From a virus, in the IMG/VR virus record IMGVR_UViG_3300033149_006677, positions 1-59,819 of that record: a stretch of 59,819 bases of DNA; one strand, written 5' to 3'. The first letter of the stretch is position 1. Each line of letters starts with the position of its first letter. Shown here piece after piece: positions 3,539 to 53,604 of this stretch. The notes beneath the pieces are model-generated. The model did no database searches. It had not been told where the DNA came from and worked only from the letters and a program-made list of their open reading frames with translations. The translations under genes and the position numbers were made by a program.

Positions 3539-3973
3539 TTAGTCATCGGACTGCGCCGACTCTTCCCACTTTCTGTTTACATCGCCAATCAGCTCCACAA
3601 TTAGCGTATGCAGAGAAATAATCAATTCTTTTCTCGCCTCAGCCGTAGTCGCGACATCGCCTTGTAACACCGAAACAAGTACAGCCAATATGCCCTCTAT
3701 CTTGCTTCTAAGTATGGAGCCTGGATCAACACATGGATCGCCTCCTTTCCTCCTTTCAATGTCAAATAGCTCTATGATATGCCTGTAGTCATCATAGTAG
3801 CCCTCTAGAGTATAGGCGTATCGGCAGCTGGCATCTGTATCCCTGGTTAAGTACATACCCTGAAGAGCATTCATCAGTTCTGATTCTATCCGTTTGCGCA
3901 TGGCACCTCGCATATTCAATTCCTCTAAACCCATCTCTTCTCTTTGGCGAGACTCACTAGAACAAATCCTCAT
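3539..3973 (-). CDS. Hypothetical helical protein, 144 aa
   Basis: The start at ATG 3971-3973 follows the stop of the previous gene by 4 bases, with a GGTGG-type ribosome binding site. A longer in-frame reading to 4225 runs through the gene at 3978-4232 in another frame and is rejected. The protein is helical throughout, with an acidic C-terminus (EESAQSDD). Not recognised. Confidence 0.6.
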   Translation of the reverse strand: MRICSSESRQREEMGLEELNMRGAMRKRIESELMNALQGMYLTRDTDASCRYAYTLEGYYDDYRHIIELFDIERRKGGDPCVDPGSILRSKIEGILAVLVSVLQGDVATTAEARKELIISLHTLIVELIGDVNRKWEESAQSDD

Positions 3974-4320: not shown

Positions 4321-4349
4321 ACTATAGCACACTTTTGTATCTTTGTCAA
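4321..4349 (-). promoter_or_regulatory. Strong leftward promoter
   Basis: The minus strand reads TTGACA (4349-4344), a 17-bp spacer ending in GTGTGC, and TATAGT (4326-4321). It fires into the leader peptide and the leftward genes down to 1599. It shares the TGTGCTATA signature with the promoters at 33412, 33561, 35406 and 43188. Confidence 0.85.
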
Positions 4350-4440
4350 GAGACGCCAAAACACGTATTTGCCTTGCGCATTTGGCAACATGGCACTATA
4401 CTACAAGCAGTCTCGTCTGCCATGTGCAGAAGGAGCAATC

Positions 4441-4467
4441 GGGAGTAGTGTGCTTGACACTACTCCC
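4441..4467. repeat. Inverted repeat upstream of the packaging promoter
   Basis: GGGAGTAGTG (4441-4450) and CACTACTCCC (4458-4467) are a perfect 10-bp inverted repeat with a 7-base gap, ending 10 bp before the -35 at 4478. No T-run follows. It is a candidate operator for the late promoter or the boundary between divergent units. Confidence 0.7.
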
Positions 4468-4477
4468 AGCACAGCCA

Positions 4478-4506
4478 TTGACACCTCCTATATAGTCATG
4501 TATACT
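4478..4506 (+). promoter_or_regulatory. Promoter of the packaging and head operon
   Basis: TTGACA (4478-4483), 17-bp spacer, TATACT (4501-4506). The transcript would start near 4513, only about 20 bases before the terminase small subunit ATG. Head and tail genes follow without a clear intrinsic terminator until 31912, apart from the hairpin at 11152. Confidence 0.8.
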
Positions 4507-31951: not shown

Positions 31952-31980
31952 TTGACAAGTGAACAAGTATGGCATATACT
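31952..31980 (+). promoter_or_regulatory. Promoter of the regulatory gene cluster
   Basis: TTGACA (31952-31957), 17-bp spacer, TATACT (31975-31980). Drives the three DNA-binding-protein genes at 32019-33184. Confidence 0.85.
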
Positions 31981-32216: not shown

Positions 32217-32550
32217 AGAAATCCGCAAGCTTGGCGAGTTAAAAGGGTATCTATCTATTAAGGATATTGTCCGAGGGACACATTTGAGCGAGTCATCGAT
32301 TCGCAGCCTCATCTATTCTGGTGAGCTACCAGCCCGAAAGGACGCTGGTATCTGGAAGGTATCTGTCGAAGACCTTGAAAATATGCAACCGAAGGATCAC
32401 AGGAAGCGCAAGCTTTCTGATGAGGACGTTCGTTTTATCAGGGAAAATAGGGGCAAGATTTTACAAGAGGACCTTGCCAAGATGTTTGGCGTATCCACGT
32501 CACACATTAGCTATATTCAGCTGAGGAAACGACGCCCAAATGTCAGATAA
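32200..32550 (+). CDS. Double helix-turn-helix regulator, 116 aa
   Basis: Start ATG 32200 has AAGGAG upstream. The N-terminal domain (LSIKDIVRGTHLSESSIRSL...) is a second excisionase-like winged helix, related to the preceding gene. The C-terminal region (ILQEDLAKMFGVSTSHISYI) is a separate helix-turn-helix. Overlaps both neighbours. Probably a repressor or activator of adjacent promoters. Confidence 0.7.
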   Translation: MVEISEEIRKLGELKGYLSIKDIVRGTHLSESSIRSLIYSGELPARKDAGIWKVSVEDLENMQPKDHRKRKLSDEDVRFIRENRGKILQEDLAKMFGVSTSHISYIQLRKRRPNVR

Positions 32551-33184
32551 CGTTCCTATTTTGGCACAGGTTATTCCCCATGCCAAGCCAACACTTGTCT
32601 CTTTGGATTTCGATCCTAATATCACCGAGGAGCAATTTGGTTCCGTTTTGCACTGCCTTGTAGACATGCAGGTATTTTCAGGAAGGTATCTTCCTATCTA
32701 TCTTGGTGATGCTCTGAACTATGGAGAGATGCGCTGGAAAGAGACTTACGCGCAATATGTAGACATAACGGGGCTCCGCGTCGAGTTACTCAGAGATTAT
32801 AAGTGGGTTATGGGGCGCGTACCCAAGGCGATTAGGAGAGAAAACCTGTACTACGGACATTACAAGGCAGTTGCGCCACTCAGCACTATTGAGGAACGAG
32901 CGGCTTGGCTGGATTGGGCGGACAAAAATAACGTCTCGACAACGGAGTTAAGAGAGGCGATTAAGTTAACGCGCTCACAGAATGAACCAGAAGAAGAGGT
33001 GCTACCACCAGAGGATGATAAAATCCTGTTAAGTAACGAGCCCGAAGATGTTTCACCAGAAGATGTTGACATCAGGGATATTGTTATAGCACTGGTAGCT
33101 ACTGCCAGGAAAGAGGCTTGGGATCAAGTCTGGGAGCTGATAAAGATCCTCGCTCAAAAATACAACATCGCCTACCCCGAATAA
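32540..33184 (+). CDS. Putative ParB/KorB-like DNA-binding protein, 214 aa
   Basis: Helical protein. Residues about 35-140 (LPIYLGDALNYGEMRWKET, LYYGHYKAVAPL, ERAAWLDWADKNNVSTTELREAIK) resemble the helix-turn-helix regions of plasmid/phage ParB-like proteins, followed by an acidic linker and a C-terminal helix for dimerisation. Last gene of the cluster, before a bidirectional terminator. Recognition is weak. Confidence 0.5.
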   Translation: MSDNVPILAQVIPHAKPTLVSLDFDPNITEEQFGSVLHCLVDMQVFSGRYLPIYLGDALNYGEMRWKETYAQYVDITGLRVELLRDYKWVMGRVPKAIRRENLYYGHYKAVAPLSTIEERAAWLDWADKNNVSTTELREAIKLTRSQNEPEEEVLPPEDDKILLSNEPEDVSPEDVDIRDIVIALVATARKEAWDQVWELIKILAQKYNIAYPE

Positions 33185-33203: not shown

Positions 33204-33241
33204 TAAAAAGAGAGAGCTCCCGTTTTGGGAGCTCTCTCTTT
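33204..33241. terminator. Bidirectional terminator between regulators and Y-like RNAs
   Basis: Perfect 13-bp stem (33209-33221 with 33227-33239) and 5-base loop. On the minus strand TTTTT follows (33208-33204); on the plus strand TTT follows. It ends the regulatory operon from the left and the RNA/Ro60 unit from the right. Confidence 0.85.
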
Positions 33242-33407
33242 GTGAAAGGGGCGGGAACGGAATCACACAGCGAACAAGAAAGGAGCGATGAGAGTGAGAG
33301 AAGGAGGGTGCTGTGTCGTATTATTCTGTTTTATCGCGGGCAAATATCGGTATGGGAATTCGGCAATCGTCAACATTATTGATAACCCATACCACTCGGC
33401 CCTGCAT
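33204..33407 (-). ncRNA. Candidate Y RNA 2 (Ro60 partner)
   Basis: The RNA starts 5-7 bases after the -10 at 33412-33417, almost exactly at the Ro-binding stem. Lower helix: GC-A-GGGC (33405-33399) pairs with GCCC-GC (33341-33336), with a bulged A. The internal loop is CGAGU on the 5' side and GAUAUUU on the 3' side. Upper helix: GGUAUGGG with CCCAUACC (8 bp), then GUUAUCA. This copies the Ro60-binding region of animal Y RNAs (GGUCCGA...GGGUUAUC). Downstream, a 7-bp pairing (33310-33316 with 33265-33271) closes a long pyrimidine-rich loop. The core is about 71 nt; the 3' end is probably at the terminator, giving about 200 nt, unless processed. Confidence 0.75.
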
Positions 33408-33411
33408 AACT

Positions 33412-33440
33412 ACTATAGCACAAAAAACCTAGCTTGTCAA
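33412..33440 (-). promoter_or_regulatory. Promoter of Y-like RNA 2
   Basis: Minus strand TTGACA (33440-33435), 17-bp spacer ending TTTTTTGTGC, TATAGT (33417-33412). It lies in the 3' end of Y-like RNA 1, whose T-run is inside this spacer. Confidence 0.85.
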
Positions 33441-33555
33441 GGTTCGCGGGCAAGGTGCGATACGGGGATTAAGCGGCACATGGCCACTGGGGTTTCAAAC
33501 CGATAACCCGTATCTTTCGGCCCTGCATTAGCAGGAACCCCCACGGTTCCTGCGT
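33422..33555 (-). ncRNA. Candidate Y RNA 1 (Ro60 partner)
   Basis: Begins about 6 bases after its -10. A strong 5' hairpin (9 bp, 33553-33545 with 33539-33531) precedes the Y core. Lower helix GC-A-GGGC (33526-33520) pairs with GCCC-GC (33451-33446). Internal loop CGAAA / GCACCUU has the same 5/7 size as in RNA 2. Upper helix GAUACGGG pairs with CCCGUAUC (8 bp), then GUUAUC. Compared with RNA 2 two upper-helix pairs change on both sides (A-U to G-C and C-G to U-A). The RNA probably stops at a short stem plus UUUUUU near 33427-33422. I see no clear tRNA-like T-arm. Confidence 0.75.
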
Positions 33556-33560
33556 AAACT

Positions 33561-33589
33561 AGTATAGCACAAAACGTTTGTCTTGTCAA
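33561..33589 (-). promoter_or_regulatory. Promoter of Y-like RNA 1
   Basis: Minus strand TTGACA (33589-33584), 17-bp spacer ending TTTTGTGC, TATACT (33566-33561). It has no ribosome binding site or ORF after it, consistent with an RNA gene. Confidence 0.85.
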
Positions 33590-33602
33590 GCCCCACAGAG
33601 AA

Positions 33603-33645
33603 GGAAAGCGCCCTTTGGGCGCTTTCCCGATGGCCCTCGGCCATC
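33603..33645 (-). terminator. Two back-to-back hairpins after the Ro60 gene
   Basis: Perfect 11-bp stem (33603-33613 with 33617-33627, 3-base loop) and perfect 7-bp stem (33629-33635 with 33639-33645, 3-base loop), one base apart. They lie between the Ro60 stop and the first Y-RNA promoter. The tail on the minus strand is TTCTCT, so termination may be partial. Confidence 0.65.
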
Positions 33646-33676: not shown

Positions 33677-35341
33677 CTAATCTCTCTTGGAGAACAAATC
33701 TCCACGGACAAATCTTTCCAATACTTTCAGTGCGCCCGTGTCAAGACCAACGATGCCTAGCGAACCAGGGTCCTCTGGGTCGAGAATTGTTATATCCGTA
33801 GCCGTCATCGCAAGGACAAAAATCTTTGCGTCTGGATTCACATATTTCCGATACTGTTTAAGCGCCTCTACTGGATGCGTATCACCATACCACGTTTCGG
33901 AGTCGGTGATAACACCGAATACATCAACTTTGATATTATTATGTAGGGCATACAGCATCGGCGCGGCACAATCTGTAGCACCAAAATATAGGCGATTCGA
34001 TCGCTCAATCACATCTCTTGGCCCATCACCTGGCAGTACGATCAATGGTTGCACGTGATGAGAAAACGCAGTAGTTCTCACCTTGTCCCCAAGCTTATTT
34101 ACGAACATGGATGCTATAGCGGCGCCCGCTTCCCTACAGGTAATGTTCCTCATGGGGCTTTCCCAATCCATAGACCCAGAGACATCAAGCGCCAATAACA
34201 CCGAGGTATCTCCCAGATCAACATTATCCATAGACAGGAAAAATGCTTGCTCAAGCGCGGCCTCAATATCGTGGTCAATTTGAAGCCTATCTCTTACTGC
34301 ATCTGGGTCTTGCATATACATCAGCTGTAGGTATTTATCCTCTTTCGGCTTAACATATGCTAGCAATGCCTGCAATACAGACATAGGATGGATTCTCGCA
34401 ACGCGCAGATATTTTGGACTGGTAACCCTGCTGATGAGCAGCTCCTTATACTTCTTATCTTTCCAAATGCCGCGGGAGCCCAGTTGCCGTATATTTCTGA
34501 GCAATGCGTCGAGTGGCATATCGGGCAGCAGCTCTTTCCAAACGTCATCGTCATTCAGCCATTTGCCTGGCACAAACTCCCAAGCAGCGCGGTTTTCTCT
34601 GATGAGCGATATAACCTCTTCCTTGGTCTGTGCTCTCTTTAGCCTTTCGACAAGACCGATCGATGGTAACGAAAACAAATCGCAGAATTCTACAGACTCG
34701 CGCTCTACTTTTCCTAATGCCCAACGGTATGCCAGGTTATGTCTCTTGTCTTGGCATCTCACATGTGCCAGGCGCAAGACATCCCTATGCGTCCAGCGTA
34801 CCCCCTCGATAGTTCTGCCTTGGTACTTGGCCATTTGGAAACCAATAGCGTCAAGATCTTTGCCATTATACCAGCTTTCGATCAGTCGTCTGATTCTACG
34901 ACCCCAGCCACGCAGTGCGTTAATATAGTGTACGAACATGAACAGATGTGTACCCGTGCGCACTACTTTGCGGAATGCGCAACCCGCATACCTATAATCG
35001 TCCTTAAAGGCGATTAGGTCAGGTAGAAAAGCAACAGCCAGGGCAAAAAGCGCTGGATTGTTCTTGGGCGCTCGCCCCTTGGTAGAGACATCGACGATCA
35101 TATCGATCGCCTTTTTGTAGTTTTCGTTTAGACACTCTTTGATGCGTTCGTAGTTGCTCTTAACGAGGTCGCGCTCTTTTACATAGTACGTACCGCCCTC
35201 AGCACCGAGAATCAGAAAGCGCTCAAATGCTTCCCACTTATCGGTTCTATAAGCATAGCCACCCGCATTATTTGGTTGCATTCCTGGTGGCGGCTCGCTT
35301 TGTAGCATACCCAACTGCATGAAATGTTTTGCGTATGGCAT
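33677..35341 (-). CDS. rsr: Ro60/Rsr orthologue (TROVE + vWA), 554 aa
   Basis: Ring-shaped RNA-binding protein that holds Y RNAs on its surface and the ends of misfolded RNAs in its central hole. TROVE landmarks are RFLILGAEGGTYYVKE near residues 37-52, THLFMFV, and WTHRDVLRLAH. The vWA domain has an intact MIDAS: DVSGSM near 386-391, GATDCAAPM near 454 and TDSETW near 482, all as in animal and bacterial Ro60. Length is close to the usual 530-540. Start ATG 35339-35341 has AGGAGGG upstream; the in-frame extension to 35485 crosses the promoter. It has its own promoter and is followed by two Y-like RNAs. In Deinococcus the Ro60-Y complex ties to PNPase for RNA decay. Confidence 0.95.
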   Translation of the reverse strand: MPYAKHFMQLGMLQSEPPPGMQPNNAGGYAYRTDKWEAFERFLILGAEGGTYYVKERDLVKSNYERIKECLNENYKKAIDMIVDVSTKGRAPKNNPALFALAVAFLPDLIAFKDDYRYAGCAFRKVVRTGTHLFMFVHYINALRGWGRRIRRLIESWYNGKDLDAIGFQMAKYQGRTIEGVRWTHRDVLRLAHVRCQDKRHNLAYRWALGKVERESVEFCDLFSLPSIGLVERLKRAQTKEEVISLIRENRAAWEFVPGKWLNDDDVWKELLPDMPLDALLRNIRQLGSRGIWKDKKYKELLISRVTSPKYLRVARIHPMSVLQALLAYVKPKEDKYLQLMYMQDPDAVRDRLQIDHDIEAALEQAFFLSMDNVDLGDTSVLLALDVSGSMDWESPMRNITCREAGAAIASMFVNKLGDKVRTTAFSHHVQPLIVLPGDGPRDVIERSNRLYFGATDCAAPMLYALHNNIKVDVFGVITDSETWYGDTHPVEALKQYRKYVNPDAKIFVLAMTATDITILDPEDPGSLGIVGLDTGALKVLERFVRGDLFSKRD

Positions 35342-35366: not shown

Positions 35367-35395
35367 ACTATAACATAAAGGCGCGAGTTTGTCAA
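35367..35395 (-). promoter_or_regulatory. Promoter of the Ro60 gene
   Basis: Minus strand TTGACA (35395-35390), 17-bp spacer, TATAGT (35372-35367). It is divergent from the replication promoter; the two -35 elements are only about 10 bp apart. Confidence 0.85.
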
Positions 35396-43187: not shown

Positions 43188-43216
43188 TTGACAAACTCAG
43201 CAAAGTGTGCTATAGT
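43188..43216 (+). promoter_or_regulatory. Promoter of the accessory operon
   Basis: TTGACA (43188-43193), 17-bp spacer ending GTGTGC, TATAGT (43211-43216). Confidence 0.85.
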
Positions 43217-48091: not shown

Positions 48092-48372
48092 TGTTGAAGT
48101 ATCATAGTTGTGGCGAGCCGATCTGGGAAAACAGAATCTGGAACGGCAAAGCATGGATAAATGTGTATTTGGGACGAGGCGGATTGCCGGCAGAGCGCTG
48201 TCCGCGTTGTACAAGATTGATTATGGAGGATGATCTATCGCCGGTGTGGCTCGATGACTTCTCGGATCTCATTAAATGTGAAAGAGAGGGGATAATCTAT
48301 GATTTAGGATATGACAGTGGCTGGAATGCTGGTTATCGTCTAGGTGTTGAGGATGGGAAGAGGAAGCGATGA
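48091..48372 (+). CDS. Zinc-ribbon-like hypothetical protein, 93 aa
   Basis: ATG 48091 has AGGAG upstream. HSCG and CPRC could form a zinc site (residues 5-8 and about 37-40). The C-terminal GYDSGWNAGYRLG segment is Gly/Tyr-rich. Overlaps the methylase start by 4 bases. Not recognised. Confidence 0.6.
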   Translation: MLKYHSCGEPIWENRIWNGKAWINVYLGRGGLPAERCPRCTRLIMEDDLSPVWLDDFSDLIKCEREGIIYDLGYDSGWNAGYRLGVEDGKRKR

Positions 48373-49232
48373 GCATGGGAAGGCTAGCGCCACTTCGATG
48401 GTTCGGGGGCAAGTATCATCTTGCGAATAAACTCCTCCCGCTTATTCCCGATCATCATACCTATGTCGAGGTATTTGGTGGTGGGGCTATGCTGTTGTTT
48501 GCTAAGGCGCCATCTCCCGTTGAGGTGTACAATGACATCGACGGTGGCCTGGTAAACTTCTTTCGAGTGATACGCGATGAAAAGAAGTTTAAGCAATTCC
48601 ATAGGCTTGTGTCGTTGACGCCCTACTCTAGAGAGGAGTATTACTTCTGCCGAGATACATGGGAAAGCATTGAGGATGATGTTGAGAGAGCGTATAGGTG
48701 GTACGTTGTAGCGAGAATGGGCTTTAGTGGCGATTTTTCGAAAGGGGGGTGGAGCTTTGCAGTTACGGCGTCCGTGAATGGTATGGCTCAGCCCTGTTGG
48801 CGATGGCTCTCTGGTATTGACAAATTGCCAGAGATTCACAAAAGAATTATAAGAGTTCAAATAGAGCATTATGATTGGAGGAAAATTTTAGAAATATACG
48901 ACACTGAAGATACATTCTTTTATTGTGATCCCCCATATATCTTGAGCACCAGGCGTAGTGGTGGGTATAGATACGAAATGACGAATGATGATCATAAAGA
49001 GCTAGTGGCTGAAGCCTTAAGACTCAAGGGCAAGGTCATGCTGAGTGGATACGATCATCCTATCTACAAGCCACTTGAAGATGCAGGATGGAGCAAGCGA
49101 CAATTCGATGTCGCTTGTGTCGCGGCTGGGCGCACTCGTGCTACTGGATTGCGGGGCGCGGGTTCTGCTAGTCATCAGCGGCGCACAGAGTGTGTGTGGA
49201 TGAACTATGAGATACAGAGAAAGCTATTCTGA
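48369..49232 (+). CDS. dam: Dam-type DNA adenine methylase 1, 287 aa
   Basis: D12-class N6-adenine methyltransferase. RWFGGKYHLANKLLPLIP (N-terminal), VEVFGGGAMLLFAK (SAM-binding FxGxG), VEVYNDIDGGLVNFFRV and FFYCDPPYIL (catalytic DPPY). Such enzymes modify GATC or related sites to protect phage DNA from restriction. Its paralogues are at 50155 and 50905. Confidence 0.92.
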   Translation: MSMGRLAPLRWFGGKYHLANKLLPLIPDHHTYVEVFGGGAMLLFAKAPSPVEVYNDIDGGLVNFFRVIRDEKKFKQFHRLVSLTPYSREEYYFCRDTWESIEDDVERAYRWYVVARMGFSGDFSKGGWSFAVTASVNGMAQPCWRWLSGIDKLPEIHKRIIRVQIEHYDWRKILEIYDTEDTFFYCDPPYILSTRRSGGYRYEMTNDDHKELVAEALRLKGKVMLSGYDHPIYKPLEDAGWSKRQFDVACVAAGRTRATGLRGAGSASHQRRTECVWMNYEIQRKLF

Positions 49233-50904: not shown

Positions 50905-51765
50905 ATGCCACGAAGTATAACGAAGCCTTTCACATGGTTAGGAGGAAAGCATTTTCTTGTCGGCAAATTGCTACCCTTGGTACCACATCATAAAGCGTAT
51001 ATAGAGCCATTTGGCGGTGGCGCTAGCATGCTGTTGAGAAAGGACCCTGCGCCGATTGAGGTATATAACGACATTGACGCAGGGCTTGCTAATTTCTTTA
51101 GGGTTATAAAAGATGAGGAGAAGTTTAAGAGATTCTACCGAATGGCTGTGCTTACATTAGTGTCTCGTGAAGAATACATGGTATGCCGAGACACATGGCA
51201 AGATGAGAAGGATGATGTCATACGGGCGTATAAATGGTTTGTCGTCGCGAGATTGTCTTTTGGCGGATTGTTCGCTGAGGCATGGGGCTTTTCGGTAAAT
51301 TCCACGTCCAACAACATGGCTCAGCGTTGTGCGTCCTGGATGTCTGCGCTAGCTGGCATGGTAGATGTACACGAGCGATTCAAAAACGTGATAGTTGAGA
51401 ATGCTGATTGGCGTGTTATCATGGATAAGTATGACTCTCCTGATGCTTTTTTCTATCTTGATCCGCCTTATGTTCCATCTACTCGTCGGGCCGGTAAGTA
51501 TGCGCATGAGCTGACTATGCAAGACCATGAGGATTTGATTGAGCGGATCCTGAAAGCGGAGGGCAAGATTCTGCTGAGTGGCTATGACAATGAGCTATAC
51601 GATGGATTGGTCGATGCGGGTTGGACAAAGATGGTGTTCGAGACTACATGTTTCGTTATCGCGCATACCACATTGACGAAAAACCTAGGAAAGGGCGCAT
51701 TGAAGGACCAAAAAAGGCATGAGACAATATGGATGAATTATAACGTGGGGGGCGGATTATGCTAG
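50905..51765 (+). CDS. Dam-type DNA adenine methylase 2, 286 aa
   Basis: Intact D12 methylase: TWLGGKHFLVGKLLPLVP, IEPFGGGASMLLRK, VYNDIDAGLANFFRV and FFYLDPPYVPS. It is closer to methylase 1 than the middle copy is. AGAGGGG site. Two active-looking adenine methylases suggest two target sites or redundancy against restriction. Confidence 0.92.
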   Translation: MPRSITKPFTWLGGKHFLVGKLLPLVPHHKAYIEPFGGGASMLLRKDPAPIEVYNDIDAGLANFFRVIKDEEKFKRFYRMAVLTLVSREEYMVCRDTWQDEKDDVIRAYKWFVVARLSFGGLFAEAWGFSVNSTSNNMAQRCASWMSALAGMVDVHERFKNVIVENADWRVIMDKYDSPDAFFYLDPPYVPSTRRAGKYAHELTMQDHEDLIERILKAEGKILLSGYDNELYDGLVDAGWTKMVFETTCFVIAHTTLTKNLGKGALKDQKRHETIWMNYNVGGGLC

Positions 51766-52178: not shown

Positions 52179-53234
52179 TTACTTGATCTCTTTCACCTTA
52201 TCCCTGATGGCGCGCAAGGCTATAGGCCATGTGTCCTTGCCATCGTACATGGCAAACGCGACGGGCATTGCGCGCTTAGGGATATTCTTCACAACCCATT
52301 GTGCGAAGCTTGCGCGATCTTGGTCAAGCTCTGACGCAATGTTGGCTTTCGTGCATTCAGAGACAACCTCGAGGGCATGATTCTCTATACGCGATACGAT
52401 GGACAAAATACGGGGCAAGAATTCGTCTGGTATTCCCTCGATGTAGTCGGGTAAAGAACCATCCAGCATATACTGGTAGATGCGCTTGGGCGACATATTG
52501 TAGAGCATACGATGGACTCTAAGATAGTCATCGCCCTTGAACTTGAATCGTTGGCCGTCCTTGAATCTTGCTACAAAGCCTTCCATCTCCGCAGCTTCTA
52601 TCTCTCTGGTCGCATCGATGAGCTCATCGATGTTACGGAAGAACCACATTTTAGGCGTAGACAGATTCAGCTCCTTGGCTAATGGCAGAAACTCTGTCAT
52701 CCAGTAGTCCTGTCCCGTAAAGCGATCAATGCAGCCTATTAGCACCAATTCGCTTTTTCCCTTGTAATCTACTACTATTCGGTTTTCTGGATAGATAATC
52801 TCGAATAGCAGCGTTAGATTGTCGGGGATCTTGGATACATCCACGTGCTTGTTGAGCCATTCGGTTGCCCATAGTGCTTGGTCGGATGTAAACGACTGCT
52901 TTGTCGCAATCTTGTGTTCGCCATTCTCGCGATACAAGATGCCCAGGGAGCCGTCCATCTTTGTGGTCACTTCCCGAAGGGGGGCGGATGTGACCCGCCC
53001 CCCTTGATTCCAGTTGAAAAACTTTTCGAATGGTAGCGCGACAATCTCTCTCGTGCTTGGATTGAGAATAAGGCCACGGCAGATACGCTCTACCCAAGGC
53101 CATTTATCCTCTATCACCGCATTCCTGGTGTAGTGCAGTAGCACCAGATCATTGTGTTTTATGCGGCGGATGTTCCAGAGCTTTTCGATTTCTACGCCGC
53201 GCTCGATCATGTCAAACAGGACACTGATATTCAT
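52179..53234 (-). CDS. T4 Rnl1-like RNA ligase, 351 aa
   Basis: ATP-dependent RNA ligase that joins 3'-OH and 5'-phosphate RNA ends. TTKMDGSLG gives the adenylated Lys (K92) of motif I, CRGLILNPSTREIVALPFEKFFNW lies upstream as in Rnl1, LLFEIIYPENRIV is motif IIIa/IIIb-like, EGFVARF motif IV, and RFKFKGDDYLRVH motif V. Start ATG 53232-53234 has GGAGAG upstream. Last gene of the leftward operon. It may repair tRNA cut by host defence nucleases, as T4 Rnl1 does. Confidence 0.88.
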   Translation of the reverse strand: MNISVLFDMIERGVEIEKLWNIRRIKHNDLVLLHYTRNAVIEDKWPWVERICRGLILNPSTREIVALPFEKFFNWNQGGRVTSAPLREVTTKMDGSLGILYRENGEHKIATKQSFTSDQALWATEWLNKHVDVSKIPDNLTLLFEIIYPENRIVVDYKGKSELVLIGCIDRFTGQDYWMTEFLPLAKELNLSTPKMWFFRNIDELIDATREIEAAEMEGFVARFKDGQRFKFKGDDYLRVHRMLYNMSPKRIYQYMLDGSLPDYIEGIPDEFLPRILSIVSRIENHALEVVSECTKANIASELDQDRASFAQWVVKNIPKRAMPVAFAMYDGKDTWPIALRAIRDKVKEIK

Positions 53235-53244
53235 CTCGTCTCTC

Positions 53245-53604
53245 CTAGATGCCAAGCTTGCGACGAATTAGCTCCACGAATTGTGGACAATACTTGGTTA
53301 TAGCATGTGGTCGCTTGTCGATGAGGCTTTGAGCAATGCGCTTTATTGCGTCCATTGCATCCTCGGCATAGATGGTCGCTGCAATACGGTCGTCTATGCT
53401 AGGATGTGCCCCCTCGCCCCATCGTTTCAAAATATCAATGGTCTCCGACGCGTCTTGGCGCGTCATGTCCTCTGTCTGTAGATCGAACTGGTCAACGAAT
53501 TCCGCAACAGTTGGGAATGCGTCACGGTAGAGATCCGCTTGGCGCTTAATGCGCTCAACTAGATCGTTGATATAGGCCAATTGCTTTTCTGTAGCTTCTC
53601 TCAT
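53245..53604 (-). CDS. Hypothetical helical protein, 119 aa
   Basis: Starts with REATEKQLAYINDLVERI, an ATEKQxxYIxxL motif common to small nucleic-acid-associated phage proteins. Helical throughout. AAGGAGG site. Ends 10 bases before the RNA ligase start; not recognised further. Confidence 0.65.
   Translation of the reverse strand: MREATEKQLAYINDLVERIKRQADLYRDAFPTVAEFVDQFDLQTEDMTRQDASETIDILKRWGEGAHPSIDDRIAATIYAEDAMDAIKRIAQSLIDKRPHAITKYCPQFVELIRRKLGI

What the first reader, a model, noticed from the sequence alone, without database searches (positions are those of the whole stretch)
33204..33589. Two tandem Y-like RNAs with independent promoters next to the phage Ro60 gene
Seen: both RNAs have the same lower helix (GC-bulged A-GGGC/GCCC-GC), a 5/7 asymmetric internal loop and an 8-bp upper helix followed by GUUAUC. 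Two upper-helix pairs differ by compensatory changes between the copies (A-U/G-C and C-G/U-A). RNA 2 closely resembles the Ro-binding strand of human Y4 RNA (CGAxGGUA...GGGUUAUCA). Each has a TTGACA-17-TATAxT promoter and no ORF. Literature on bacterial Y RNAs reports phage examples, but a two-copy set like this deserves direct study.
Basis: partly seen in the sequence, partly recalled or inferred. Interest (0 to 1): 0.92.

Follow-up and report, generated by a model that had tools for sequence, protein, structure and literature searches.

The report
Two Y RNAs beside phage Ro60
An uncultured phage carries its own copy of Ro60, a ring protein known from animals and some bacteria, together with two small partner RNAs of the Y RNA family; the identification is sound, but having several such RNAs turns out to be common, and the unexpected part is that these simple phage and bacterial forms carry sequence motifs known from animal Y RNAs.

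Summary
A covariance model built from 25 Y-like RNAs of other Ro60 phages, with the window left out, finds exactly these two RNAs in the whole window (33336-33405, E 4e-5; 33446-33526, E 4e-4; next best 0.78). Rfam's vertebrate Y_RNA model finds RNA 2 as its only hit (E 2e-4, below the curated cut-off). Both have the Ro60 site: a helix with one bulged C and a G.U/A-U step. The neighbour is a true Ro60 (E 1e-75 to Xenopus Ro60) whose start must move to ATG 35341. Ro60 and each RNA have their own TTGACA-17-TATAxT promoter, and a strong terminator closes the set. What is not unusual is the pair: 40 of 85 phage Ro60 loci and 37 of 80 bacterial ones carry two or more candidates, and Salmonella has rsr-yrlB-yrlA. 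Neither RNA has the tRNA-like module of YrlA, so a role as Ro60 ligand and gate is likelier than PNPase tethering. Side result: these minimal RNAs keep the UUA(U/C)C motif known from animal Y RNAs and nematode sbRNAs (49 of 55 found by structure alone). No transcript or binding data exist.

The parts
35367..35395 (-). Promoter of Ro60, TTGACA-17-TATAGT
   Evidence: 11/12 match; lies inside the longest ORF reading, so it argues for the downstream start
33677..35341 (-). Ro60 (TROVE + vWA) gene, 554 aa, ATG at 35341 with AGGAGGG at 35353-35347
   Evidence: Pfam vWA_Ro60 6e-49, TROVE 4e-24; phmmer to 1yvp E 1e-75; start from promoter, Shine-Dalgarno and alignment
33602..33628 (-). Hairpin after Ro60, probable terminator (12-bp stem, UUCUCU tail)
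   Evidence: fold -26.7 kcal/mol, z -2.7; the U tail is poor
33561..33589 (-). Promoter of RNA1, TTGACA-17-TATACT, TG extended -10
   Evidence: 11/12
33531..33553 (-). 5' hairpin present only in RNA1 (GCAGGAACC...GGTTCCTGC)
   Evidence: fold
33446..33526 (-). RNA1 core: minimal Y RNA with 40-nt apical region; bulged C 33519, UUAUC 33502-33506
   Evidence: phage Y-RNA model R1, 24.9 bits, E 3.6e-4 over the window, window not in the model
33412..33440 (-). Promoter of RNA2, TTGACA-17-TATAGT, TG extended -10; begins just after RNA1 ends
   Evidence: 11/12
33336..33405 (-). RNA2 core: minimal Y RNA; bulged C 33398, UUAUC 33381-33385, AUG/CAU in the upper stem
   Evidence: R1 28.5 bits, E 4.1e-5; RF00019 25 bits, E 2.3e-4, below gathering 38
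33207..33241 (-). Strong terminator closing the set (15-bp stem, T run); as an inverted repeat it may also end the converging plus-strand gene 32540-33184

Best explanation
This is a self-contained Ro60 ribonucleoprotein cassette of a phage: promoter, Ro60, terminator, promoter, Y RNA 1, promoter, Y RNA 2, terminator. Shown by sequence: both RNAs are members of a minimal Y RNA class that sits next to Ro60 genes in phages and bacteria. They carry the bulged-C Ro60 site and the UUAUC loop motif and lack the tRNA-like module of YrlA. Inferred: during infection Ro60 binds both RNAs through the bulged lower helix on the outside of its ring. The RNAs stabilise the protein and block or tune entry of other RNA 3' ends into the ring (the gate role). 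Two copies with separate promoters and different apical parts supply an excess of ligand and perhaps two partner specificities. The complex would handle damaged or misfolded RNA of the infected cell, in company with the phage's T4-type RNA ligase.
For: Models: R1 built without the window finds both RNAs, E 4.1e-5 and 3.6e-4, next 0.78; RF00019 finds RNA2 only. Association: 125 of 125 R1 hits around phage Ro60 genes and 108 of 108 around bacterial ones are on the Ro60 strand. In 20 whole phage records (2.0 Mb), 41 of 45 hits lie within about 3 kb of Ro60. The reverse test, scanning IMG/VR for GGGCCGAAGN3-9GGTTATC, gave 24 Y-structured matches, 21 with Ro60 on the same strand. Structure: 92% of cells paired and covariation 0.61 against 0.22 shuffled in 106 bacterial sequences. 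Protein: Ro60 E 1e-75 to 1yvp, and positions aligned to Xenopus K170, R174 and H187 are kept (that these bind Y RNA is from memory). Cassette. Phage RNA ligase. Gate and ligand roles: PMC4726728; YrlA's tRNA-like domain as the PNPase binder: PMC8394870.
Against: No transcript, binding or phenotype data. Scores are modest: no Rfam family reaches its curated cut-off on either RNA. RNA1 has a C-G pair at the position where 67 of 74 phage and 48 of 55 bacterial RNAs have A-U or U-A. R1's seeds were chosen with a motif that requires GGUUA and the bulge, so covariation in A2 is partly by construction. The role in infection is inference; the host is unknown.
Confidence: 0.7

Rival explanations
1. The RNAs are tethers: the lower helix binds Ro60 and the apical loop docks Ro60 onto the host exonuclease PNPase, making a RYPER-like degradation machine that the phage directs at structured host RNA.
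For: The bacterial precedent is a Ro60-Y RNA-PNPase complex in Deinococcus and Salmonella (PMC7790460, PMC8394870). RNA2 has a largely open 29-nt apical loop; RNA1 has 40 nt there.
Against: In YrlA the PNPase-binding end is the tRNA-like domain (PMC8394870), and neither RNA here matches YrlA or tRNA models at E 1 or better. 24 phage loci carry a tRNA-mimic Y RNA beside a minimal one, which suggests a division of labour.
Confidence: 0.17
2. RNA1 is a reduced tRNA-mimic Y RNA and RNA2 a minimal one, so the pair repeats in small the mixed sets of other phages; RNA1 would act on tRNA-handling enzymes or nucleases as a decoy.
For: RNA1's apical part begins GGUUUGAAACC directly after UUAUC, close to the T-arm-like GGUUCGAUUCC at the same place in the L052 RNA at 3644-3760; gaps of 0-3 nt occur in 5 of the tRNA-mimic RNAs. 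YrlA as a competitive inhibitor of an anticodon nuclease has been proposed (PMC7790460).
Against: No tRNA or YrlA model match; the T-stem would be only two pairs; the same letters fold as a 4-bp hairpin. The comparison was made after seeing the data.
Confidence: 0.08
3. The structures are not Y RNAs but terminators, attenuators or DNA-level repeats of the phage.
For: Hairpins are common in intergenic DNA; fold z-scores are only about -2.
Against: Two independent covariance models and the strand-specific Ro60 association; promoters placed 6-7 nt before the RNA starts.
Confidence: 0.03

Closest known systems
Bacterial Y RNAs next to rsr: Salmonella yrlB-yrlA, and YrlA (RF02553)
   Same: Two RNAs directly downstream of Ro60 on its strand (PMC9879122); basal helix that binds Ro60.
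   Different: YrlA has a tRNA-like domain (PMC8394870), these have none; Salmonella transcribes the set from one sigma54 promoter, here each RNA has its own sigma70-type promoter; RF02553 does not match.
Vertebrate Y RNAs (RF00019) and nematode stem-bulge RNAs (RF01656)
   Same: [quoted passage not shown] RNA2 also has the A/GUG-CAC/U upper-stem motif (PMC4450293, PMC4726728).
   Different: Below the RF00019 cut-off (25 against 38 bits); no oligo-U tail from Pol III; RNA1 has ACG/CGU in the upper stem and gives no RF00019 hit.
Y-like RNAs beside Ro60 in sequenced actinophages and IMG/VR phages
   Same: Same strand, same bulged helix and UUAYC, often in sets of two to six.
   Different: Most lie upstream of Ro60 (105 of 117; 12 downstream) and most lack a recognisable promoter of their own; many sets include a tRNA-mimic RNA.

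Membership tests
Ro60 / Rsr protein | TROVE domain followed by Ro60-type vWA domain | tested here: met
   Pfam TROVE 3.6e-24 and vWA_Ro60 6e-49; E 1e-75 to 1yvp
Ro60 / Rsr protein | Residues contacting Y RNA | tested here: inconclusive
   Positions aligned to Xenopus K170, R174, H187 are K, R, H; their role is from memory and there is a 4-aa insertion in this stretch
Y RNA (Ro60-binding) | Basal helix of about seven pairs with a single bulged cytidine (PMC4726728) | tested here: met
   GC-A-GGGC/GCCC-GC, bulged C, then G.U and A-U in both RNAs; R1 matches both. With the extra bulged A there are six pairs below the C and two above it
Y RNA (Ro60-binding) | Asymmetric bulge on the opposite strand (three nucleotides in vertebrates) | tested here: inconclusive
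   Five unpaired nucleotides on the 3' strand above the UU, against two on the 5' side; asymmetric in the same sense, but the size differs
Y RNA (Ro60-binding) | Physical binding to Ro60 | not testable with these tools
   needs gel shift or pull-down
Rfam Y_RNA RF00019 | Score at or above gathering (38 bits) | tested here: not met
   RNA2 25 bits, E 2.3e-4 in the window; RNA1 no hit
Rfam YrlA RF02553 | Model match and tRNA-like domain | tested here: not met
   no match at E 1 or better and no tRNA match in this region
[quoted passage not shown]
   UUAUC directly after the upper helix in both RNAs
Vertebrate Y RNA / nematode sbRNA motifs | A/GUG-CAC/U in the upper stem (PMC4450293) | tested here: inconclusive
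   RNA2 has AUG/CAU (met); RNA1 has ACG/CGU (not met) (population counts)
Minimal Y RNA class of Ro60 loci (model R1) | R1 match on the Ro60 strand near Ro60 | tested here: met
   24.9 and 28.5 bits; cores begin 151 and 272 nt after the Ro60 stop codon, same strand

The most novel reading that the evidence does not exclude
Phage and bacterial Ro60 genes are served by a widespread class of minimal Y RNAs that no prokaryotic Rfam family covers. They share with animal Y RNAs not only the bulged Ro60 helix but also the UUA(U/C)C motif and, in bacteria, the UG-CA upper-stem core that were tied to chromosomal DNA replication in animals. The motifs would then be an old property of the Ro60 particle, the animal and prokaryotic Y RNAs would be homologous, and phages would move the cassette about.
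Probability: 0.35. Interest if true: 0.75.

Novelty: new member of a known kind. Interest (0 to 1): 0.5.

Why it matters
Ro60 and Y RNAs are known mostly as human autoantigens, and the role of prokaryotic forms is unsettled. A compact phage cassette with two RNAs differing mainly in their apical part is a convenient system for separating the gate role from the tether role. The wider result bears on an open matter: a review states that bacterial Y RNAs are not homologous with the vertebrate clades (PMC4726728), yet minimal bacterial ones pass Rfam's curated cut-off for nematode sbRNAs, and UUA(U/C)C, which full-length sbRNAs need in replication assays (PMC4450293), is present in 49 of 55 prokaryotic and phage RNAs found by structure alone.

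Tried and rejected
Single-protein searches of viral and genome contigs with this Ro60 found nothing; the alignment A1 was needed. A search for close relatives of these very RNAs (GCAGGGCCGANNGRTAYGGGTTATC) in IMG/VR found none. RF00019 on ten named phages gave only weak hits far from Ro60. tRNA/YrlA identity for RNA1 was considered and not supported. Chance origin of the promoters was rejected. Host: terminase and helicase relatives are too distant to tell; Chloroflexota are prominent among the nearest cellular Ro60 genes, which is only a hint. A first script failed on a bug and was rerun. The main papers on bacterial Y RNAs (Chen 2014; the Sim and Wolin reviews) are not held, so I cannot say whether the minimal class is already described there. 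The alternatives of decoy for a host Ro60 and of DNA-level function were considered; neither has support.

Full report
What is there. On the minus strand, between the Ro60 gene and a strong terminator, lie two RNA genes. RNA1 (core 33526-33446) and RNA2 (core 33405-33336) have the same bulged lower helix, an asymmetric internal loop, an 8-bp upper helix with two compensatory changes between the copies, and UUAUC. A review describes the vertebrate Ro60 site as a seven-pair helix with one bulged cytidine and a bulge opposite (PMC4726728).

Is it more than chance. Rfam RF00019 over the whole window gives one hit, RNA2, E 2.3e-4, below the curated cut-off. I then took Ro60 loci of other phages: ten annotated actinophages and 80 IMG/VR loci found with a Ro60 alignment. 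A structural descriptor found 51 Y-like RNAs, all on the Ro60 strand, against 3 in twice as much shuffled sequence. From 25 of these, without the window, a covariance model R1 was built. It finds RNA2 and RNA1 at E 4.1e-5 and 3.6e-4 over the window with filters off; the next match is at 0.78. E-values from this short calibration are rough, and the seeds were chosen with a motif, so covariation in the seed alignment is partly by construction. The bacterial hits (106 distinct sequences) show covariation 0.61 against 0.22 in shuffles, with all slid controls near 0.1, though that alignment was fitted to the model.

Association with Ro60. R1 hits: 125 in phage loci and 108 in bacterial loci, every one on the Ro60 strand. 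In 20 whole phage records (2.0 Mb) 41 of 45 hits lie within about 3 kb of Ro60. From the other side, an IMG/VR scan for GGGCCGAAGN3-9GGTTATC gave 24 matches with Y structure, 21 of them with Ro60 on the same strand; two of the three others lie on locus pieces of about 2 kb or less.

The cassette. Nine promoter-like sites of 11/12 or better occur in the window against 0-2 per shuffle. Three serve this module: Ro60 (35395-35367), RNA1 (33589-33561), RNA2 (33440-33412). The first lies inside the long TTG-started ORF. Together with AGGAGGG at 35353-35347 and the lack of any counterpart of the first 48 residues in relatives it puts the start at ATG 35341 (554 aa). A 12-bp hairpin follows Ro60 and a 15-bp terminator follows RNA2. 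There is none between RNA1 and RNA2, so RNA1 may also be made as a precursor through RNA2.

How common. Of 85 distinct phage loci 69 have at least one Y RNA candidate and 40 have two or more; of 80 bacterial loci 65 and 37. Salmonella has rsr-yrlB-yrlA (PMC9879122). Phages have been reported to carry YrlA (PMC7765460). The pair as such is thus ordinary. Less ordinary are position downstream of Ro60 (12 of 117 phage hits) and a separate good promoter (16% at 9/12 or better; 4% at 10/12 or better).

What it probably does. YrlA's tRNA-like end is the part reported to hold PNPase (PMC8394870). Neither RNA here matches YrlA or tRNA models. I therefore favour the ligand-and-gate role over the tether role for this phage. 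RNA1's apical region opens with GGUUUGAAACC, which resembles a T-arm at the same place in L052, but the evidence is thin. The phage also encodes a T4 Rnl1-type RNA ligase (52179-53255), which fits a setting of RNA damage and repair during infection; a survey of jumbo phages likewise discusses TROVE proteins alongside RNA ligases (PMC7824862).

A wider result. A scan by structure alone, with no UUAYC requirement, gave 55 hits on the Ro60 strand and 3 on the other; 49 of the 55 have UUAYC at the helix-loop junction against a background of 1.2%. That motif is known at the same place in vertebrate Y RNAs and nematode sbRNAs (PMC4450293). In bacteria U-A and G-C dominate at the two positions of the animal UG-CA core (39 and 38 of 55); in phages an A/U pair is kept (67 of 74), more often turned round. 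Four bacterial RNAs pass Rfam's cut-off for the nematode sbRNA family RF01656. Homology and convergence on Ro60 cannot be told apart with these data.

Verdict. Real, correctly identified, a new member of a known kind; the broader minimal class deserves a look.

Noticed in passing
window 52179-53255 (-): T4 Rnl1-type RNA ligase (Pfam PF09511 3.9e-19, PHROG 562), so the phage has RNA repair as well as Ro60; no polynucleotide kinase was recognised.
   Followed up: partly
window 48369-49232 and 50905-51765 (+): Two DNA methyltransferases close together (PHROG 56; the first is Pfam D12 class), probable counter-restriction.
   Followed up: no
window 4321-4506, 43188-43216, 31952-31980: Further TTGACA-17-TATAxT promoters; those at 4349(-) and 43188(+) share the extended -10 TGTGCTATAGTA with the Y RNA promoters, and 4349(-) and 4478(+) diverge from one regulatory region.
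   Followed up: no
L128:4691-4756, L133:4670-4735, L108:2848-2920, L141:2685-2754: RNAs beside bacterial Ro60 (Chloroflexota, Sungbacteria) score above Rfam's cut-off for the nematode sbRNA family RF01656.
   Followed up: partly
L004, L010, L057, L072, L123: Long mixed arrays of minimal and tRNA-mimic Y RNAs (up to about eight candidates) beside Ro60, not annotated in the named phage records among them.
   Followed up: partly
MT897905 71209-71294, MH727564 72190-72273, NC_070782 71026-71112: Y-like RNAs 8-10 kb upstream of Ro60 in Streptomyces phages.
   Followed up: no
L241 near 8455 (-), and the record of L078 at 260660: Y-structured RNA in a 14-kb phage piece without Ro60, and one about 140 kb from Ro60 in a 296-kb phage: possible orphan Y RNAs.
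   Followed up: no
L078:2292-2407 (+): wcaG RNA (RF01761, 56 bits against 42) just after Y RNAs of a large phage.
   Followed up: no
Mycobacterium phages Iota (MK359330) and NoodleTree (NC_054719): Ro60 gene split in two annotated ORFs in one, reduced to a 13% piece in the other: loss of Ro60 within a phage cluster.
   Followed up: no
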